In this document: in pieces, positions 434-30,635 of the stretch | Layout: each line of letters starts with the position of its first letter | Numbering within the stretch: position 1 is the first letter of the stretch | IMG/VR virus record: IMGVR_UViG_3300035698_002641 | Coordinates: 1-30,659 of that record | Direction: 5' to 3' (one strand) | Length of the DNA: 30,659 bases | Source of the DNA: a virus | The notes under the pieces: generated by a model | Database searches by the model: none | What the model saw: the letters and a program-made list of their open reading frames with translations, nothing else | What the model was told of the DNA's origin: nothing | Position numbers and translations under genes: made by a program

Positions 434-937
434 TCAACTCCACTTCATCATGAACATTGTTTTCTCAGGACAATCATTTGGGTATATTTTGTTAACATAG
501 TCTTGGAAACTGAGCTGTTTTCCATTTACCCACCACTCCCTTGTGCCAGTTGAATAGATAACAGCCGGGCCATCTTCTCTATGGATTCTGCCATTTAGAT
601 ACCATGCTTTTCTGCCATCCGGATTGGTAATAGCAGGACTATCTTCTCTATGGAGTTTGCCGTTTAGGTACCATTCTTGTCTGCCACCCGTATAGATAAT
701 AGCCGGACCATCTTCTCTATGGAGTTTGCCGTCTTGGTACCAAACTTGCTTCACTATATCTGCATTCTCGGTGTTACATGGTTTGGCACAATGAGTTTGG
801 TGCATTGTTCTAGAAAGGATAAACAATGGTCGTTTATAATAGGTTCTTCCGCCATGTTTATTGAATCGAAAATTCAATGGAATTATACCAAAAGTAGTAC
901 CAAAGTTAAATATCTTTTTCCAGATCGATAAAGTCAT
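434..937 (-). CDS. HREDGPA-repeat (MORN-like) protein with unique N terminus
   Basis: The protein has 167 residues. About 65 N-terminal residues are unrelated to the repeats and contain a cysteine pair (HCAKPC). Three to four HREDGPA...WYLNGK units follow, then a conserved tail, DYVNKIYPNDCPEK followed by MFMMKWS. The same tail closes the intact repeat gene at the right end of the window, so it defines the family. No good Shine-Dalgarno sequence precedes the ATG at 937, and a later start at Met45 is possible. The gene is translated just ahead of the left-edge paralogue. One repeat reads HREDSPA, a mild decay of the motif. Function is unknown; a YwqK-like antitoxin label would be name-only. 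Confidence 0.75.
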   Translation of the reverse strand: MTLSIWKKIFNFGTTFGIIPLNFRFNKHGGRTYYKRPLFILSRTMHQTHCAKPCNTENADIVKQVWYQDGKLHREDGPAIIYTGGRQEWYLNGKLHREDSPAITNPDGRKAWYLNGRIHREDGPAVIYSTGTREWWVNGKQLSFQDYVNKIYPNDCPEKTMFMMKWS

Positions 938-13471: not shown

Positions 13472-14327
13472 CATGCTCATTTCTGTCTGGCCAGATAATT
13501 TACCCAATAACCATACTCTTGTATTTCCTCAATTAATTGACGAGATTTCAAAAACCGATACCATTGTTGAAAACTCTTACGACTGTGACGCTGCATTGAT
13601 TTGGAGCGTGTTGTGGAATGGAAAAATGTTGAAAAATAAAGCCGTTTGGGACCACTATAGAAAACAAGAAAAACCAGTCTTTGTGATTGAAGTTGGTGGA
13701 TTAAATCGAAATCTTTCTTGGAAACTAGCAGTCAATGGCATTGATTCTAACGCACAATATGGACTGGAACATGGCTACGACGGTGATAGAAGATGTAAAT
13801 TCGACATTCCTCTATCACCACTTCAAACCGGTGAGAATATCTTAATAGTTGGCCAACATCAGTTAAGCGAACAATGGAAGAATATGCCTGTTACCGAATT
13901 GTATTATAAGAAAATTGTTGATGGTATTCGACAGATTTCCGATGATCCTATATTAATTAGAAGCCATCCTAGATGGAAAGAGAATATACATTTTGAACTA
14001 ACTACTCCAGATTGGTTCTCACAACGAGATTGTCGTTTTGTTTCACCGACTCTAATTGCAGGATCATATGATTCTTTTGACTTTGATACAACGTTGCATA
14101 ACACAAAAGTTGTTGTTAATCATAACAGCAACACCGGCGTTCAGAGCTTAATAAAAGGCATTCCGATAATTGTAGATCCTAGTAGTATGGCCCACGAACA
14201 TTCTAGCAAATCTGTTAACGATCTAGTATTAGCTGATCGTGAAGATTGGATAAACAAGATTACTTATACGGAATGGTATGCAGATGAAATAGGCGTGCAA
14301 TGGAATCGTATACGATCCATGCTTTAG
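13458..14327 (+). CDS. Capsule-synthesis-like (KpsC/KpsS-type) protein, paralogue 3
   Basis: The protein has 289 residues. The start at 13458 gives a first beta strand (MKVFTMLISVWPDN); an alternative ATG lies at 13473. The C-terminal domain has ILIRSHPRWKEN, an FDFDTTLHN segment, and VVVNHNSNTGVQSLIKGIPIIVDPSS, the NS-x-x-G...GIP block of capsule polysaccharide synthesis proteins, then a W-rich tail. It is related to paralogues 1 and 2 of this cluster but lies alone on the opposite strand. Its TAG overlaps the uvsY stop by 4 nt, marking the border between glycan cluster and phage core. The sugar handled is unknown. Confidence 0.6.
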   Translation: MKVFTMLISVWPDNLPNNHTLVFPQLIDEISKTDTIVENSYDCDAALIWSVLWNGKMLKNKAVWDHYRKQEKPVFVIEVGGLNRNLSWKLAVNGIDSNAQYGLEHGYDGDRRCKFDIPLSPLQTGENILIVGQHQLSEQWKNMPVTELYYKKIVDGIRQISDDPILIRSHPRWKENIHFELTTPDWFSQRDCRFVSPTLIAGSYDSFDFDTTLHNTKVVVNHNSNTGVQSLIKGIPIIVDPSSMAHEHSSKSVNDLVLADREDWINKITYTEWYADEIGVQWNRIRSML

Positions 14328-14782
14328 ATTGAAGCATCTTCTAGCCCCGCTGTCCGTAACTTGGTTATGTGCCCTAGCATGAAATTTTTAGATTCGAGTC
14401 CTTTGATTACCCCCATCCATTTATTACGAAGTAGAGCTACTTCGTTGATCAAATGTGTGTACGCAATAACTTCATCTTCGGCGTCTGCATATTTTTCTGC
14501 GTCTCGCCCCGACAATGCCTTCGCATAGGTCTCAAGATATTTTCTATAATGCTTATTTCGAATCTTCCGTAGATTTATGTTCAGGAAATTCAAAACAGCT
14601 TCAACTTCTTGAAGTTGGTTAAATCGTTCTTCTGTGATACCAGGAAGCATAGAGAGATTTTTCTCTATGCTTCCTTTGATTGAAGTTTCTATCCTTGCAG
14701 CCTCTAATTCTTTTTCATAATAAGATATGAAATTTGGAATAAGAGAAAGATCAGATACAACCCGTTGGTACCACTGTGCCAT
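14324..14782 (-). CDS. uvsY: UvsY-like recombination mediator
   Basis: The 152-residue, largely helical protein ends GLESKNFMLGHITKLR, which parallels the C-terminal ALDAIKSRGFAIKHIQDMR of T4 UvsY. Length (T4: 137) and position, three genes after the uvsX pieces in the same operon, support the call. UvsY loads UvsX recombinase on gp32-coated ssDNA and acts in recombination-dependent replication. The ATG lies 3 nt after the stop of the small upstream gene. The similarity is partial, so the call rests on the tail motif and context together. Confidence 0.7.
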   Translation of the reverse strand: MAQWYQRVVSDLSLIPNFISYYEKELEAARIETSIKGSIEKNLSMLPGITEERFNQLQEVEAVLNFLNINLRKIRNKHYRKYLETYAKALSGRDAEKYADAEDEVIAYTHLINEVALLRNKWMGVIKGLESKNFMLGHITKLRTAGLEDASI

Positions 14783-15032: not shown

Positions 15033-15599
15033 TTAGTCTGTAATTTCTTCTGACACGTCGTTAATCATTTCTTCTATGTCAGTTTCGTCATCGCTAATTA
15101 TAGCATCTACTTGGTCTAGCGCCAATATATCAGCTGCAAGAACCTCGTTCATCACAACTAATAATTGTGCTGGTGTCCAGTTTTTGCGAAATTCTATAAT
15201 CTCCGTCCCATCCTTGCTAACGAACTTCAACCTGTTCCCGACCTTGGTTAAGATCTCTTTCTTCTCAAAAAGGTCAATAAGTCCACTTTCTGCCTGCATA
15301 CCATGGGCGTAAGGAATCTTCACCGAAACCGCTTCAAACGGTTTTGAGTAACGAGTCTTCATCACTTTGCACTTGGCACGAATGCCTCTAACATCACTTA
15401 TTTTATTGCCATCCTCGTCTTCTTTCAACTTTAATTTCTTCATTGCGATAACGATTGAGCTGGCATAGATAAATCCGCTGTTATGACTTACTATTCCATT
15501 CTCAAGTATATAATGATGGGCATCTGGCACACATATGTCATGTACTGTGTTCGTTCCCAGTGATTGTTTTTTTGCAATAGTGATTGGTTGTAATTTCAT
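15033..15599 (-). CDS. uvsX: UvsX C-terminal part with N-terminal C-intein (split gene)
   Basis: The protein has 188 residues. Residues 1-40 are a C-intein, with TVHDICVPDAHHYILENG and the terminal VSHN; residue 41 is Ser, the +1 nucleophile. Residues 41-188 are the C-terminal part of a UvsX/RecA-type recombinase, starting SGFIYASSIVIAMKKLKL and ending with an acidic tail as in T4 UvsX. The gene has its own ATG with GGAG 8 nt upstream and is in a different frame from the N-terminal gene, with a 199-nt spacer. It is thus a separate cistron rather than a sequencing break. Joined to the N-extein it would give a 368-residue recombinase (T4 UvsX: 391). Trans-splicing is required for a full-length enzyme. 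Confidence 0.85.
   Translation of the reverse strand: MKLQPITIAKKQSLGTNTVHDICVPDAHHYILENGIVSHNSGFIYASSIVIAMKKLKLKEDEDGNKISDVRGIRAKCKVMKTRYSKPFEAVSVKIPYAHGMQAESGLIDLFEKKEILTKVGNRLKFVSKDGTEIIEFRKNWTPAQLLVVMNEVLAADILALDQVDAIISDDETDIEEMINDVSEEITD
15480..15599 (-). other. C-intein (40 residues) of split uvsX intein
   Basis: Codons 1-40 carry intein blocks F and G: VHDI-x-VPDAHHYILENG, then IVSHN with the terminal Asn, followed by Ser. The length matches the 35-40 residue C-inteins of known naturally split inteins. Confidence 0.85.
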
Positions 15600-15762
15600 C
15601 GATTTTCTCCATAATATAAGTTAGTTTATCTAATTTGTTGGCTGACTCCCGGCCAACAATGGTCTCAATACCCCTGCTTTTTAATAAGCATTTTTGTTTC
15701 TCATGATCCTTTTGCCATATGTCACTAGCTCTTAATTGTGACTGTTTGTGAAAATATTCAGC
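15600..15762 (-). pseudogene. Probable remnant of an EDxHD/VSR-type homing endonuclease in the uvsX spacer
   Basis: An open frame, entered after a TAA at 15763-15765 and lacking a start, reads AEYFHKQSQLRASDIWQKDH, then EKQKCLLKSRGIETIVGRES and KLDKLTYIMEKID. The order D...K...L...GI...I..E is that of the last strands of VSR-like homing nucleases; compare KTKMCDDIGLRLIHIWEHDW in the intact endonuclease at 27592-29214. The catalytic residues would lie upstream and are absent. In fractured phage genes described from metagenomes, a free-standing endonuclease of this family sits exactly between split-intein halves. The reading is inference from one short frame. Confidence 0.4.
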
Positions 15763-15798
15763 TTAGCAAAAAAGAAGATTTGCGGTGGCCAAAGCTAA

Positions 15799-16743
15799 TC
15801 AATTACATACTTGTAATATCGAATCTCCATCATTTAATTCCGAAACCGTTTTCCACTCATGGGTTCCATTACTAGATTCTACTAAAAATTTATGCTCTCC
15901 TGTTGCTTGAATAATCTCACCATTTTCTAATATAAGTTCAAATATTTCCTTATCTTCATACTTAAATGTCTCTGATACAGCAATGTCGCCATCTAGAGTA
16001 ATCACAATATCGCCTATGTTAATATCCTCGATATTCTTAGTCGTCTGGTCTGCCATTACTATCTTGTGACCTGCTGTTAAACAACCGCCGGAAATTTTAT
16101 CGTCTGGATCAAACATATCCTGGCTTGCATAAGTATGGTTTGTGCAGACCATGCCTACATTATAAGATCCGAACATGTTTACACAATTTCGAACCAAGGA
16201 AGTTAATGCCTTAGGTTTCCGTCCCATATCACCCTTCATATCACCCTTGTTAAACTGGTCAATATCTGTGGGTGTTAACAGCATTCCTAGACTGTCGATA
16301 ACAAACAATACCTTTGGTCTCTCCTCGGCGGGCATTTCCTTATAATCTTTCATGAAAGTAGATATTGTCTTTGCTACATTGTCTACCATCGCCATAGACA
16401 ACTTTAGAAGTTTGCTTTCATCTGTATCAACACCTAGCCGCTGTAGCCAATCTTCATCAAGTGCATTTTCACTATCAATTAAGACTACGAATATTCCCTG
16501 TTCTTGTGCATTCTTTACAATATTGCCAGCGCAGAAATAACTCTTACCACTTCCGCTCTCGCCGGCGAAGACTGTTACTTTACCAAGCGGAATTCCTTTA
16601 AAGAAATCTCCACTAACAAGATAGTTTAGAGCATAATTGCCAGTTGATATCCAATCTGTGGGATCATGAAATCCTATGCTTAATCCATCGATACTCTTAG
16701 TAATATCTTTTCTAAATTTTGAAATGTCAAACGGTCTAGACAT
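15799..16743 (-). CDS. uvsX: UvsX N-terminal part with C-terminal N-intein (split gene)
   Basis: The protein has 314 residues. Residues 1-220 are the recombinase core: Walker A GESGSGKS (61-68), VVLIDSENAL (87-95), Walker B VLFVIDSLG (145-153) and the TNHTYASQDMF segment (201-211) that matches T4 UvsX INHTYETQEMF. At Gly220 the recombinase stops and an N-intein begins at Cys221 (CLTAGHKIVM). It runs 94 residues to a TGA. The break lies at KISGG^SGFIY, the glycine-rich ssDNA-contacting loop region of RecA-type proteins (T4: GGGTGPMYSA). AAGGAGAA lies upstream of the ATG. UvsX catalyses strand exchange in replication and repair. Confidence 0.9.
   Translation of the reverse strand: MSRPFDISKFRKDITKSIDGLSIGFHDPTDWISTGNYALNYLVSGDFFKGIPLGKVTVFAGESGSGKSYFCAGNIVKNAQEQGIFVVLIDSENALDEDWLQRLGVDTDESKLLKLSMAMVDNVAKTISTFMKDYKEMPAEERPKVLFVIDSLGMLLTPTDIDQFNKGDMKGDMGRKPKALTSLVRNCVNMFGSYNVGMVCTNHTYASQDMFDPDDKISGGCLTAGHKIVMADQTTKNIEDINIGDIVITLDGDIAVSETFKYEDKEIFELILENGEIIQATGEHKFLVESSNGTHEWKTVSELNDGDSILQVCN
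15802..16083 (-). other. N-intein (94 residues) of split uvsX intein
   Basis: Codons 221-314 of the N-terminal gene: block A CLTAGHKIVM with catalytic Cys, block B ATGEHKFLV with the TxxH-type pair, then WKTVSELNDGDSIL before the stop. The length is close to that of other naturally split phage N-inteins. No endonuclease domain is present. Confidence 0.85.
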
Positions 16744-27591: not shown

Positions 27592-29214
27592 TTAGTTAGA
27601 ATAAATCCAAACAGAATTTCCGCAATCCCAAATTCTATCAAATCCGAATGTTTTCATGTTTTGCCACGCGGTTTGCTCTGGGTCATAATTTTCTGACAAC
27701 GCTGCAAGTTTGTGCTTTTGGTATTTGAGTCTAGACTCAAATTCTAGATAATTCTTTGTATAAGCATACGACGGCGAAGAATAGTGTAAGAAATCAAATC
27801 CTAATTCCTTATAAAGATTTCCGGTTGACCACATTCGATCAGCATATGAAATTACAGAAGTTGGATTTACACATGATACAAACCTTGAAAACAATTTACT
27901 CGCGCCGCCAATTACTACAGTGTTCAATTTAGAAGAAAATCTTAATAATTCATATTCGTACGACTTGTTGAATCTCGGTCGCCCAAATGACATTGCAGCT
28001 ACTATCTCTTCATCGTACATTAATCCATAACATGTAGAAAAAATGCATGATCCTTGCAAGTGTGTTTCATTAAAGAATTTGTTAGCTTGTGTTCTAGAAA
28101 GTTCCACAATCTTGCATTTTCTTGCAAAAATCCTATCTGCACAGTTAGCTATAGATTTTAATCTAGATCCAACTATCTCCTGTTTAGTAATCCAATCATG
28201 TTCCCATATGTGTATCAATCGAAGGCCGATGTCATCACACATTTTCGTCTTCATTAAATGGTAATCTCTTGTCTTTCCTTGATTCTCAGCATGCCAATAT
28301 GATCCATTGCATTCAATTGCGATTCTATTATCAATCACAATATCTAATTCGTATGGCATGATTGTGGTATTGTTATTTGCATCAAAATTTATATTGTTGG
28401 TTACGAGGAAATCCTGCACAGACGATTCGAAGTTTGAAATTGTTTTCGGGAAACATAATAAGCATATAGGAATTTTACCATTGTCTAAGTGGTCTATAAA
28501 CTCTGCAGAACATTGTGTGCATTTCCATTTATATTCGTTTTTTGCACCAATGTATTCATCTCGCAAAAACAACGGTTGAACTAATCCGTTGGTTCGATCC
28601 TCTAGTTTATCAAAGAAAGATGTACGTTGCGCGATTCTTCTCTGAGATTCTAGCTGACCATGTTTTGCTTTGATTTTCTGTTTAATCTTATTTGATTTCG
28701 ATGGATTATCAACTCCGTATCGAAATAGGTTTGTTTGTCTAATCTTCTCTTTAACTTCTTTGGATTGAGACGGATAACAAGTCCCTCGCCTTTGCAAATT
28801 AGTTTCAGTTGATTTTCTTTGAGCCTCCGGCGTGCCCAAATATGATTTCGATCCATACCTAGATAAATTGGTTTCTTCTCTTTTTTGTTTTGTTAACGAC
28901 GAGTTGTCTGAACACTTACTAGAACAAAATACTTTATAGCCTTTTTGAAAATTTTGAAACGATACATTATTATCGCATTCTATACAGGCTGTTGTATTTG
29001 TGATACTATTAACCACGCAATAGATGCGTTCTGACATTGTGGCATTTTTTAAAAGGAAGTTTGTCACCGAAAGGATTTCGTTATATAGTGGCGATGATAA
29101 GAATTTTGATCCTTTGACAAAGTTCTTACTGTAGAGTTTCCTGGATCTTGTAAATAATCCAGGAAACTCCATAATCTGTTGTTTTAAAGTAGACATGTTT
29201 AAGTATATAGCCAT
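27592..29214 (-). CDS. Free-standing homing endonuclease, EDxHD/VSR-like
   Basis: The protein has 540 residues. Order: an N-terminal helix region; a zinc knuckle (CIEC 77-80, CSSKC 97-101); three DNA-binding repeats of the TNLxRYG type (about 116-175); a second zinc ribbon (CTQC 232-235, CLLC 251-254); a VSR/EDxHD-type nuclease with PYELDIVI (Asp291), IAIECNGSYWH (Glu301, His308) and LIHIWEHDW (333-341); and a C-terminal domain (CKIVELSRTQANKFF to the end) often found beside such nucleases. It would nick or cut an allele lacking it and promote its own spread. It is inserted between the tail tube gene and the baseplate gene. The start may be Met7 instead. Confidence 0.85.
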   Translation of the reverse strand: MAIYLNMSTLKQQIMEFPGLFTRSRKLYSKNFVKGSKFLSSPLYNEILSVTNFLLKNATMSERIYCVVNSITNTTACIECDNNVSFQNFQKGYKVFCSSKCSDNSSLTKQKREETNLSRYGSKSYLGTPEAQRKSTETNLQRRGTCYPSQSKEVKEKIRQTNLFRYGVDNPSKSNKIKQKIKAKHGQLESQRRIAQRTSFFDKLEDRTNGLVQPLFLRDEYIGAKNEYKWKCTQCSAEFIDHLDNGKIPICLLCFPKTISNFESSVQDFLVTNNINFDANNNTTIMPYELDIVIDNRIAIECNGSYWHAENQGKTRDYHLMKTKMCDDIGLRLIHIWEHDWITKQEIVGSRLKSIANCADRIFARKCKIVELSRTQANKFFNETHLQGSCIFSTCYGLMYDEEIVAAMSFGRPRFNKSYEYELLRFSSKLNTVVIGGASKLFSRFVSCVNPTSVISYADRMWSTGNLYKELGFDFLHYSSPSYAYTKNYLEFESRLKYQKHKLAALSENYDPEQTAWQNMKTFGFDRIWDCGNSVWIYSN

Positions 29215-30284: not shown

Positions 30285-30635
30285 ATGACAAAAGAGATTG
30301 GTGCTGACGGCTCGATTAGATATTATAATTCAGATGGTCAACTCCACAGAGAAGACGGCGTCCCGGCTGTTATCTGGCCAGATGGCACAGAGTATTGGTA
30401 TATAAATGGGGAACGTCATAGAACAGATGGGCCCGCTATTATTGAGGCAGATGGCACAGAGTATTGGTATATAAATGGGGAACGTCATAGAGAAGACGGC
30501 CCGGCTGTTATTCGGGCAGATGGCACAGAGTATTGGTTTCTAAATGGTCATCATTGTAATTTCGAGGCATATGTTAACAAATTATATCCAAATGACTGTC
30601 CTGAGAAACCCATGTTTATAATGAGATGGAGTTGA
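30285..30635 (+). CDS. HREDGPA-repeat (MORN-like) protein
   Basis: The 116-residue protein begins MTKEIGADGSIRYYNSDGQL, then has HRED/HRTD repeats at a 23-residue period (HREDGVPAVIWPDGTEYWYI, HRTDGPAIIEADGTEYWYI, HREDGPAVIRADGTEYWFL), and ends FEAYVNKLYPNDCPEKPMFI, MRWS. The first unit has one extra residue (DGVPA). GTGGGG lies about 10 nt before the ATG. Its stop is followed by an in-frame TAG and, 4 nt after the TGA, by the start of another gene with the same first seven residues. It is the only complete copy on the right side. Function is unknown. Confidence 0.78.
   Translation: MTKEIGADGSIRYYNSDGQLHREDGVPAVIWPDGTEYWYINGERHRTDGPAIIEADGTEYWYINGERHREDGPAVIRADGTEYWFLNGHHCNFEAYVNKLYPNDCPEKPMFIMRWS
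30379..30491 (+). repeat. Exact 44-bp direct repeats at 69-bp period
   Basis: 30379-30422 and 30448-30491 are identical (CAGATGGCACAGAGTATTGG and onward). A third, shorter copy starts at 30519. They lie inside the repeat gene and encode consecutive protein units; identity at synonymous sites points to recent duplication or gene conversion. Confidence 0.8.

What the first reader, a model, noticed from the sequence alone, without database searches (positions are those of the whole stretch)
15600..15798. Spacer between uvsX halves appears to hold a dead homing endonuclease tail
A start-less open frame in the spacer has the D...K...L...GI...I..E order of the C-terminal strands of VSR/EDxHD nucleases, and resembles the end of the nuclease domain in the intact gene at 27592-29214. 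In fractured genes the free-standing endonuclease normally sits exactly here. If real, this is a post-homing state: the nuclease has been lost while the split intein is retained because uvsX needs it.
Basis: inference. Interest (0 to 1): 0.7.

Follow-up and report, generated by a model that had tools for sequence, protein, structure and literature searches.

The report
Dead homing-nuclease tail in split uvsX
Between the two halves of this phage's split recombinase gene lies the leftover end of a DNA-cutting "homing" gene that related phages still carry whole in the same spot, so it records how a selfish gene dies while the protein-splicing element it travelled with stays behind because the phage needs it.

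Summary
The start-less frame at 15541-15762 (-) is the C-terminal end of a Vsr-like (EDxHD) homing endonuclease. A profile built only from relatives' spacer nucleases, window excluded, hits this frame at E 5.5e-14 (47.5 bits, profile positions 274-332 of 335). The best of 10,000 shuffles scores 12 bits, and it is the best hit among 877 open frames of the window. In related phage contigs the same spacer, between the same split-intein halves of uvsX, holds an intact 331-394-residue nuclease. Its catalytic domain (model pLDDT 94) matches Vsr (Z 9.9) and I-Bth0305I (Z 9.2). The window's copy lacks the start, the DNA-binding region and the E, D and H of the motif; a near-invariant Trp and the normal stop are also lost. 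Other contigs show parallel decay: 91, 29 and about 14 codons left, or a bare 21-nt spacer. In four of five shortened spacers the 3' end survives; it carries the ribosome-binding site of the downstream uvsX half. The intein motifs look intact. The gene at 27592-29214 is only a distant cousin, not the source. This is a new member of a known kind (a fractured gene), caught after homing.

The parts
15799..16743 (-). uvsX N-terminal half: N-extein (220 aa, 16084-16743) plus N-intein fragment (94 aa, 15802-16083), own stop
   Evidence: RecA and Intein_splicing Pfam hits; phrog_97 UvsX; extein 60-90% identical to other UvsX
15033..15599 (-). uvsX C-terminal half: C-intein fragment (40 aa, 15480-15599, ends HN) plus C-extein starting at Ser (148 aa)
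15583..15759 (-). C-terminal remnant (59 codons) of a Vsr-like EDxHD homing endonuclease; frame open 15541-15762, no start codon
   Evidence: HMM of spacer nucleases, positions 274-332/335, E 5.5e-14; 43-44% identical to the intact L172 nuclease
15541..15582 (-). out-of-phase continuation of the remnant frame inside the C-half gene, past where the nuclease stop lies in intact relatives (26-nt overlap)
15760..15798 (-). junction stretch: remains of the nuclease leader (TTTTTTGCTAA) joined to nuclease codon about 268 by a deletion of roughly 0.8 kb (deletion size inferred)
   Evidence: comparison with the L172/L187 leaders and tails
15607..15610 (-). GGAG ribosome-binding site of the C half, lying inside the nuclease 3' coding end (IMEKI codons)
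   Evidence: sequence, and same position in L171, L184, L219
15635..15659 (-). perfect 8-bp hairpin TTGTTGGC-CGGGAGTCA-GCCAACAA covering the mutated VVWESDN codons (now VGRESAN)
27592..29214 (-). separate intact EDxHD-class homing endonuclease (phrog_3339, MTES_1575); distant cousin, not the source of the remnant

Best explanation
This is a fractured gene in its post-homing state. uvsX is cut in two by a naturally split intein, and the protein is expected to be rejoined by trans-splicing. A free-standing Vsr-like (EDxHD) homing endonuclease gene once lay between the halves, as it still does in related phages, and would have spread the whole cassette by cutting intein-free uvsX alleles. In this lineage a deletion of about 0.8 kb removed the nuclease from its leader to roughly codon 268, leaving 59 recognisable 3' codons that have since drifted. 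The intein halves remain because the split uvsX is useless without them. The 3' tail remains at least partly because it contains the ribosome-binding site of the C half. Shown: homology, location, intact orthologues in the same spacer, parallel remnants, the Vsr fold of the intact domain, loss of catalytic residues. Inferred: nuclease activity in relatives, trans-splicing, deletion size, the reason for retention.
For: Profile hit at E 5.5e-14, 47.5 bits, against 12.0 bits for the best of 10,000 shuffles. Intact nucleases in the homologous spacer: L172, L176, L178, L187, L193, L195, L200, L218, L219/L220, L177, L180/L182/L198. Catalytic domain: profile matches Vsr 1VSR/1CW0/1ODG at E 2e-4; model pLDDT 93.7; Z 9.9 to 1CW0 and 9.2 to I-Bth0305I 3R3P. 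Parallel remnants: L184 91 codons, L201 29 codons (E 8.6e-7), L171/L183 last about 14 codons, L192 bare 21-nt spacer. The near-invariant Trp (W108 of A5) is Arg only in the window. Codon-position differences to L172 are 0.36/0.20/0.69, so most divergence arose while the tail was coding and death is recent. Intein motifs are intact: CLTAG, ATGEHKF, HN|S. Intein identity exceeds extein identity for some pairs (L171-L172 0.79 vs 0.69), consistent with horizontal movement.
Against: The remnant frame has no internal stop or frameshift, which could mean recent death or some residual use. Neither trans-splicing nor nuclease activity of any member was tested. The decay series rests on a handful of contigs.
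Confidence: 0.93

Rival explanations
1. The tail has been put to use: it is kept as a translated peptide, as a structured mRNA leader, or for translational coupling of the C half, so it is not simply dead.
For: The frame is still open over 74 codons. The C half's GGAG lies inside it, and four of five shortened spacers keep this end. A perfect 8-bp hairpin has formed over the mutated VVWESDN codons.
Against: No start codon upstream of the remnant. A conserved Trp and the normal stop are lost. Fold z-score is only -1.9 for the hairpin half. L192 does with 21 nt and no tail.
Confidence: 0.15
2. The deletion is an assembly or chimera artefact and the real phage has a full nuclease here.
For: Single contig; the junction was not found elsewhere.
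Against: The tail carries its own substitutions against every intact copy (only 44% identical, Trp to Arg, stop lost), which a chimera of a known intact gene would not show. L171 and L183 show the same kind of loss in two different metagenomes (2 differences over 469 bp).
Confidence: 0.04
3. The tail derives from a duplicated copy of the nuclease gene at 27592-29214.
For: Both are EDxHD-class; the spacer-nuclease HMM gives that gene 20 bits. L235 carries a nuclease with the same layout (EDxHD core plus long C-terminal part) in the uvsX spacer, so such a gene can sit there.
Against: The remnant scores 47.5 bits with phrog_22677-like spacer nucleases, which end right after the EDxHD domain as the remnant does. 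The 27592-29214 protein continues about 190 residues beyond it.
Confidence: 0.02
4. Chance open frame with a coincidental residue pattern.
For: Pfam and PHROGs find nothing in the bare frame.
Against: E 5.5e-14, end-to-end match to the C-terminus of orthologues located in the same spacer and joined to the same C-half start.
Confidence: 0.005

Closest known systems
Fractured genes with split inteins and Vsr-like nucleases (Dassa et al. 2009, PMC2677866; paper not held, known from memory and citations)
   Same: Conserved DNA-metabolism gene cut in two by a split intein with a Vsr-like nuclease gene inserted between the halves, in phages
   Different: Here the nuclease has decayed to a 59-codon tail; the state is after homing rather than during it
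I-Bth0305I, type member of EDxHD homing endonucleases (3R3P; described in PMC3943268)
   Same: Intact orthologues of the tail have the same catalytic fold (Z 9.2) and conserved E, D, H and D residues
   Different: I-Bth0305I has a complete catalytic domain; the window keeps only the last strand and helices and no E, D or H
Very short patch repair endonuclease Vsr (1CW0, 1VSR)
   Same: Fold and order of motifs DF..G.WH..D..K..W
   Different: Vsr is a mismatch-repair enzyme; the spacer nucleases carry about 200 extra N-terminal residues
Split uvsX of T4-like phages (Yersinia TG1, Proteus Pm5461, Vibrio EniLVp02, Escherichia ELT1, Salmonella SEA1, Shewanella Thanatos-1)
   Same: uvsX split by a related N-intein with a homing nuclease between the halves
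   Different: Their spacer genes carry NUMOD3, with GIY-YIG annotated in TG1 and detected in Thanatos-1, not EDxHD, and they are intact
Homing-cycle decay of inteins (Gogarten and Hilario 2006, PMC1654191)
   Same: Nuclease selected only while spreading, then lost; splicing element retained
   Different: Here the nuclease is a separate gene in a split intein, so loss leaves a spacer instead of a mini-intein

Membership tests
Fractured gene with naturally split intein | two halves of one enzyme, each fused to an intein fragment, encoded as separate adjacent genes | tested here: met
Fractured gene with naturally split intein | intein splicing residues (Cys1, block B His, C-terminal HN and Ser+1) | tested here: met
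   CLTAG, ATGEHKF, HN|S; alignments A1 and A2
Fractured gene with naturally split intein | intact free-standing nuclease gene between the halves | tested here: not met
   Only a 59-codon start-less remnant in the window; intact in L172, L177, L180, L219
Fractured gene with naturally split intein | protein trans-splicing | not testable with these tools
   needs co-expression of the two halves
EDxHD (Vsr-like) homing endonuclease: intact spacer orthologues | Vsr-like catalytic fold | tested here: met
   Z 9.9 to 1CW0 and 9.2 to 3R3P over 95-110 residues; profile E 2e-4 to Vsr chains
EDxHD (Vsr-like) homing endonuclease: intact spacer orthologues | conserved E, D, H, D in order | tested here: met
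   E30, D45, H63, D89 of the L172 domain conserved in nearly all A5 rows; assignment of the motif letters is from memory and the Vsr alignment
EDxHD (Vsr-like) homing endonuclease: the window remnant itself | complete catalytic motif and start codon | tested here: not met
   Only the last D is present; E, D and H are deleted, near-invariant W is R
EDxHD (Vsr-like) homing endonuclease: intact spacer orthologues | cleaves the intein-free target allele | not testable with these tools
   biochemical assay needed
phrog_3339-type homing nuclease (gene 27592-29214) | remnant should score best with this family | tested here: not met
   No phrog_3339 hit for the frame; it fits the spacer-specific phrog_22677-like family

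The most novel reading that the evidence does not exclude
One uvsX site shows the whole life of a fractured gene: empty site, contiguous mini-intein, split intein with an intact nuclease of several unrelated types, graded remnants (91, 59, 29, about 14 codons), and a bare split intein. This would document directly that nuclease-free natural split inteins arise when a fractured gene loses its homing nuclease, and that the loss is channelled by the downstream half's ribosome-binding site, which lies in the nuclease's own 3' coding end.
Probability: 0.6. Interest if true: 0.6.

Novelty: new member of a known kind. Interest (0 to 1): 0.5.

Why it matters
Natural split inteins without a nuclease are prized tools, yet how they arose has few direct witnesses. 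This locus and its relatives give intermediate steps at one insertion site: nuclease present, half gone, tail only, gone. They suggest a concrete rule for where the deletion can stop, because the next gene's ribosome-binding site is written in the nuclease's last codons. The locus also yields a ready set of naturally split UvsX inteins to test, and intact EDxHD nucleases with a predictable target (intein-free uvsX).

Tried and rejected
Pfam and PHROGs scans of the bare 74-aa frame gave nothing usable. tblastn of the frame against 50,697 phage records gave no match at E 10, and the back-translated pattern scan of viral contigs with the frame gave none. The relatives came instead from a DNA pattern for the uvsX intein junction. 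A full-length structure prediction of the nuclease had low confidence (pLDDT 66.7), so only the catalytic domain was used. Foldseek alone gave no E below 0.001, though Vsr ranked second. The hairpins in shortened spacers (window, L171, L201) were considered as a shared regulatory element, but their fold z-scores are weak (-1.9, 0.0, +0.9). The Dassa 2009 and Taylor 2011 papers are not held. TATAAATA is not enriched in the window, so no late-promoter claim is made for the window itself.

Full report
What was claimed.

The setting. The window is an IMG/VR virus record of 30,659 bases. On the minus strand it reads uvsX N half (15799-16743), spacer, uvsX C half (15033-15599), a small gene of unknown function, then a uvsY-like gene at 14324-14782. 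The N half ends in an N-intein fragment (CLTAG..., 94 aa) and the C half begins with a C-intein fragment (40 aa...SHN|S), both recognised by Pfam PF14890, the second only weakly. Their motifs agree with inteins at the same site in L085, L086 and Salicola phage SCTP-2. About 155 related uvsX loci have no intein at this point (gap 0).

The frame is real and significant. It is open for 74 codons, 15541-15762. General libraries do not recognise it. A scan of viral contigs for the uvsX/Cys1 junction gave 31 loci. In about a dozen of them the frame's translation hits the spacer, just upstream of the C-intein, at 42-44% identity (36% in one, L177). Those spacers mostly hold open genes of 331-394 aa. 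A profile made only from the relatives' genes hits the window's frame at E 5.5e-14, 47.5 bits, covering profile positions 274-332 of 335, with the best of 10,000 shuffles at 12.0 bits. The gene at 27592-29214 reaches only 20.3 bits.

What the intact genes are. They match phrog_22677 (no function given) and weakly the homing-nuclease families phrog_3339 and phrog_559. A profile of their catalytic domain and more distant relatives finds Vsr structures at E 2e-4. The domain model (pLDDT 93.7) aligns with 3HRL (Z 10.8), Vsr 1CW0 (Z 9.9) and the homing endonuclease I-Bth0305I 3R3P (Z 9.2), above the rows that follow. E30, D45, H63 and D89 of the domain are nearly invariant. They are therefore EDxHD-class nucleases; cleavage was not tested.

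What the window has lost. It lacks the start, the N-terminal region and the first strands, so E, D and H are gone. The near-invariant Trp (W108) is Arg. In intact relatives the nuclease stop lies 26 nt inside the C-half gene; here the frame runs on for 59 nt. Differences from L172 by codon position are 0.36/0.20/0.69, the pattern of a coding sequence, and the leave-one-out score of the tail (35 bits) lies within the range of intact genes. Death is thus recent relative to the divergence. The 5' edge joins TTTTTTGCTAA, like the leader of L172, to codon about 268, implying a deletion of about 0.8 kb (inferred).

Parallel cases. L184 keeps 91 codons including much of the catalytic core but no start. 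L201, whose intein is 98% identical to L172's, keeps exactly the last 29 codons. L171 and L183 keep about the last 14 (TAIMEKINESKKSKD, compare L219 NQIMEKINELKNSKN). L192 has a bare 21-nt spacer. In a tree of the exteins L201, L184 and the window/L171 pair sit on separate branches, so at least three losses are the simplest reading. In four of the five shortened spacers the 3' end is kept, and it contains the ribosome-binding site that serves the C half. This is a simple reason why tails persist. It is an inference; L192 shows that a new short leader can also serve.

Mobility. Intein identity exceeds extein identity for L171-L172 (0.79 vs 0.69) and L235-L172 (0.76 vs 0.67), although inteins elsewhere diverge faster (window-L171 0.61 vs 0.80). 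This fits lateral spread of the intein cassette.

Different occupants of the same spacer. L235 holds a 524-aa nuclease laid out like the window's 27592-29214 gene. L190 holds an IS607-like serine recombinase and a TnpB-like gene plus a nuclease N-terminal fragment (identified by reading the sequences, no profile run). Six T4-like phages hold genes with NUMOD3, one with a detected GIY-YIG domain. The spacer is a recurrent landing site.

Literature. Gogarten and Hilario (PMC1654191) describe the homing cycle in which the nuclease decays after fixation. PMC3943268 describes EDxHD enzymes and I-Bth0305I. The founding fractured-gene paper (Dassa 2009) is not held; its content is cited from memory. 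T4 SegA, next to uvsX, cuts uvsX (PMC2988022), so uvsX is an established homing target.

Verdict. Observation confirmed, interpretation supported, one correction: the tail is not a relative of the 27592-29214 gene beyond the superfamily. It is a new member of a known kind in an informative state.

Noticed in passing
L190:8688-11053 (-): The uvsX spacer of this phage contig holds an IS607-like serine recombinase and a TnpB-like gene next to an N-terminal fragment of the EDxHD nuclease, as if a transposon had broken and replaced the homing nuclease.
   Followed up: partly
L172:11305-11375 (+); also L187 and, shorter, L190: Before the intact nuclease start lies a 12-19-bp perfect hairpin (fold z -7.7 in L172) whose 3' arm holds the nuclease ribosome-binding site and whose loop holds CTAAATAC/GATAAATAG, resembling a T4 late promoter; this recalls the hairpin control of T4 intron nucleases.
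   Followed up: partly
L179, L184, L187, L200, L235, L171 (uvsX between extein residues 64 and 65): Several of these uvsX genes are also interrupted at the P-loop by a second insert; in L179 and L184 it contains another EDxHD-like domain. The window's uvsX is not interrupted there.
   Followed up: partly
L235:2505-4079 (+) and window 27592-29214 (-): A 524-aa nuclease laid out like the window's 27592-29214 gene occupies the uvsX spacer in L235, so the window's other nuclease is of a type able to live in this spacer.
   Followed up: partly
L236:1521-2954 (Pseudomonas phage PA5oct gp275): A free-standing 477-aa protein with an EDxHD-like C-terminus lies 3 bp upstream of an uninterrupted uvsX, with a Hef-like nuclease downstream: a possible collaborative-homing partner for an intein-free uvsX.
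   Followed up: partly
window 15635-15659: The substitutions VVWESDN to VGRESAN turn a quasi-palindrome (7 of 8 pairs in L184) into a perfect 8-bp hairpin; a templated quasi-palindrome correction is conceivable.
   Followed up: partly
window 434-937 (-) and 30285-30635 (+): Two proteins built of the same HREDGPAVI...WYINGE repeats lie at opposite ends of the window.
   Followed up: no
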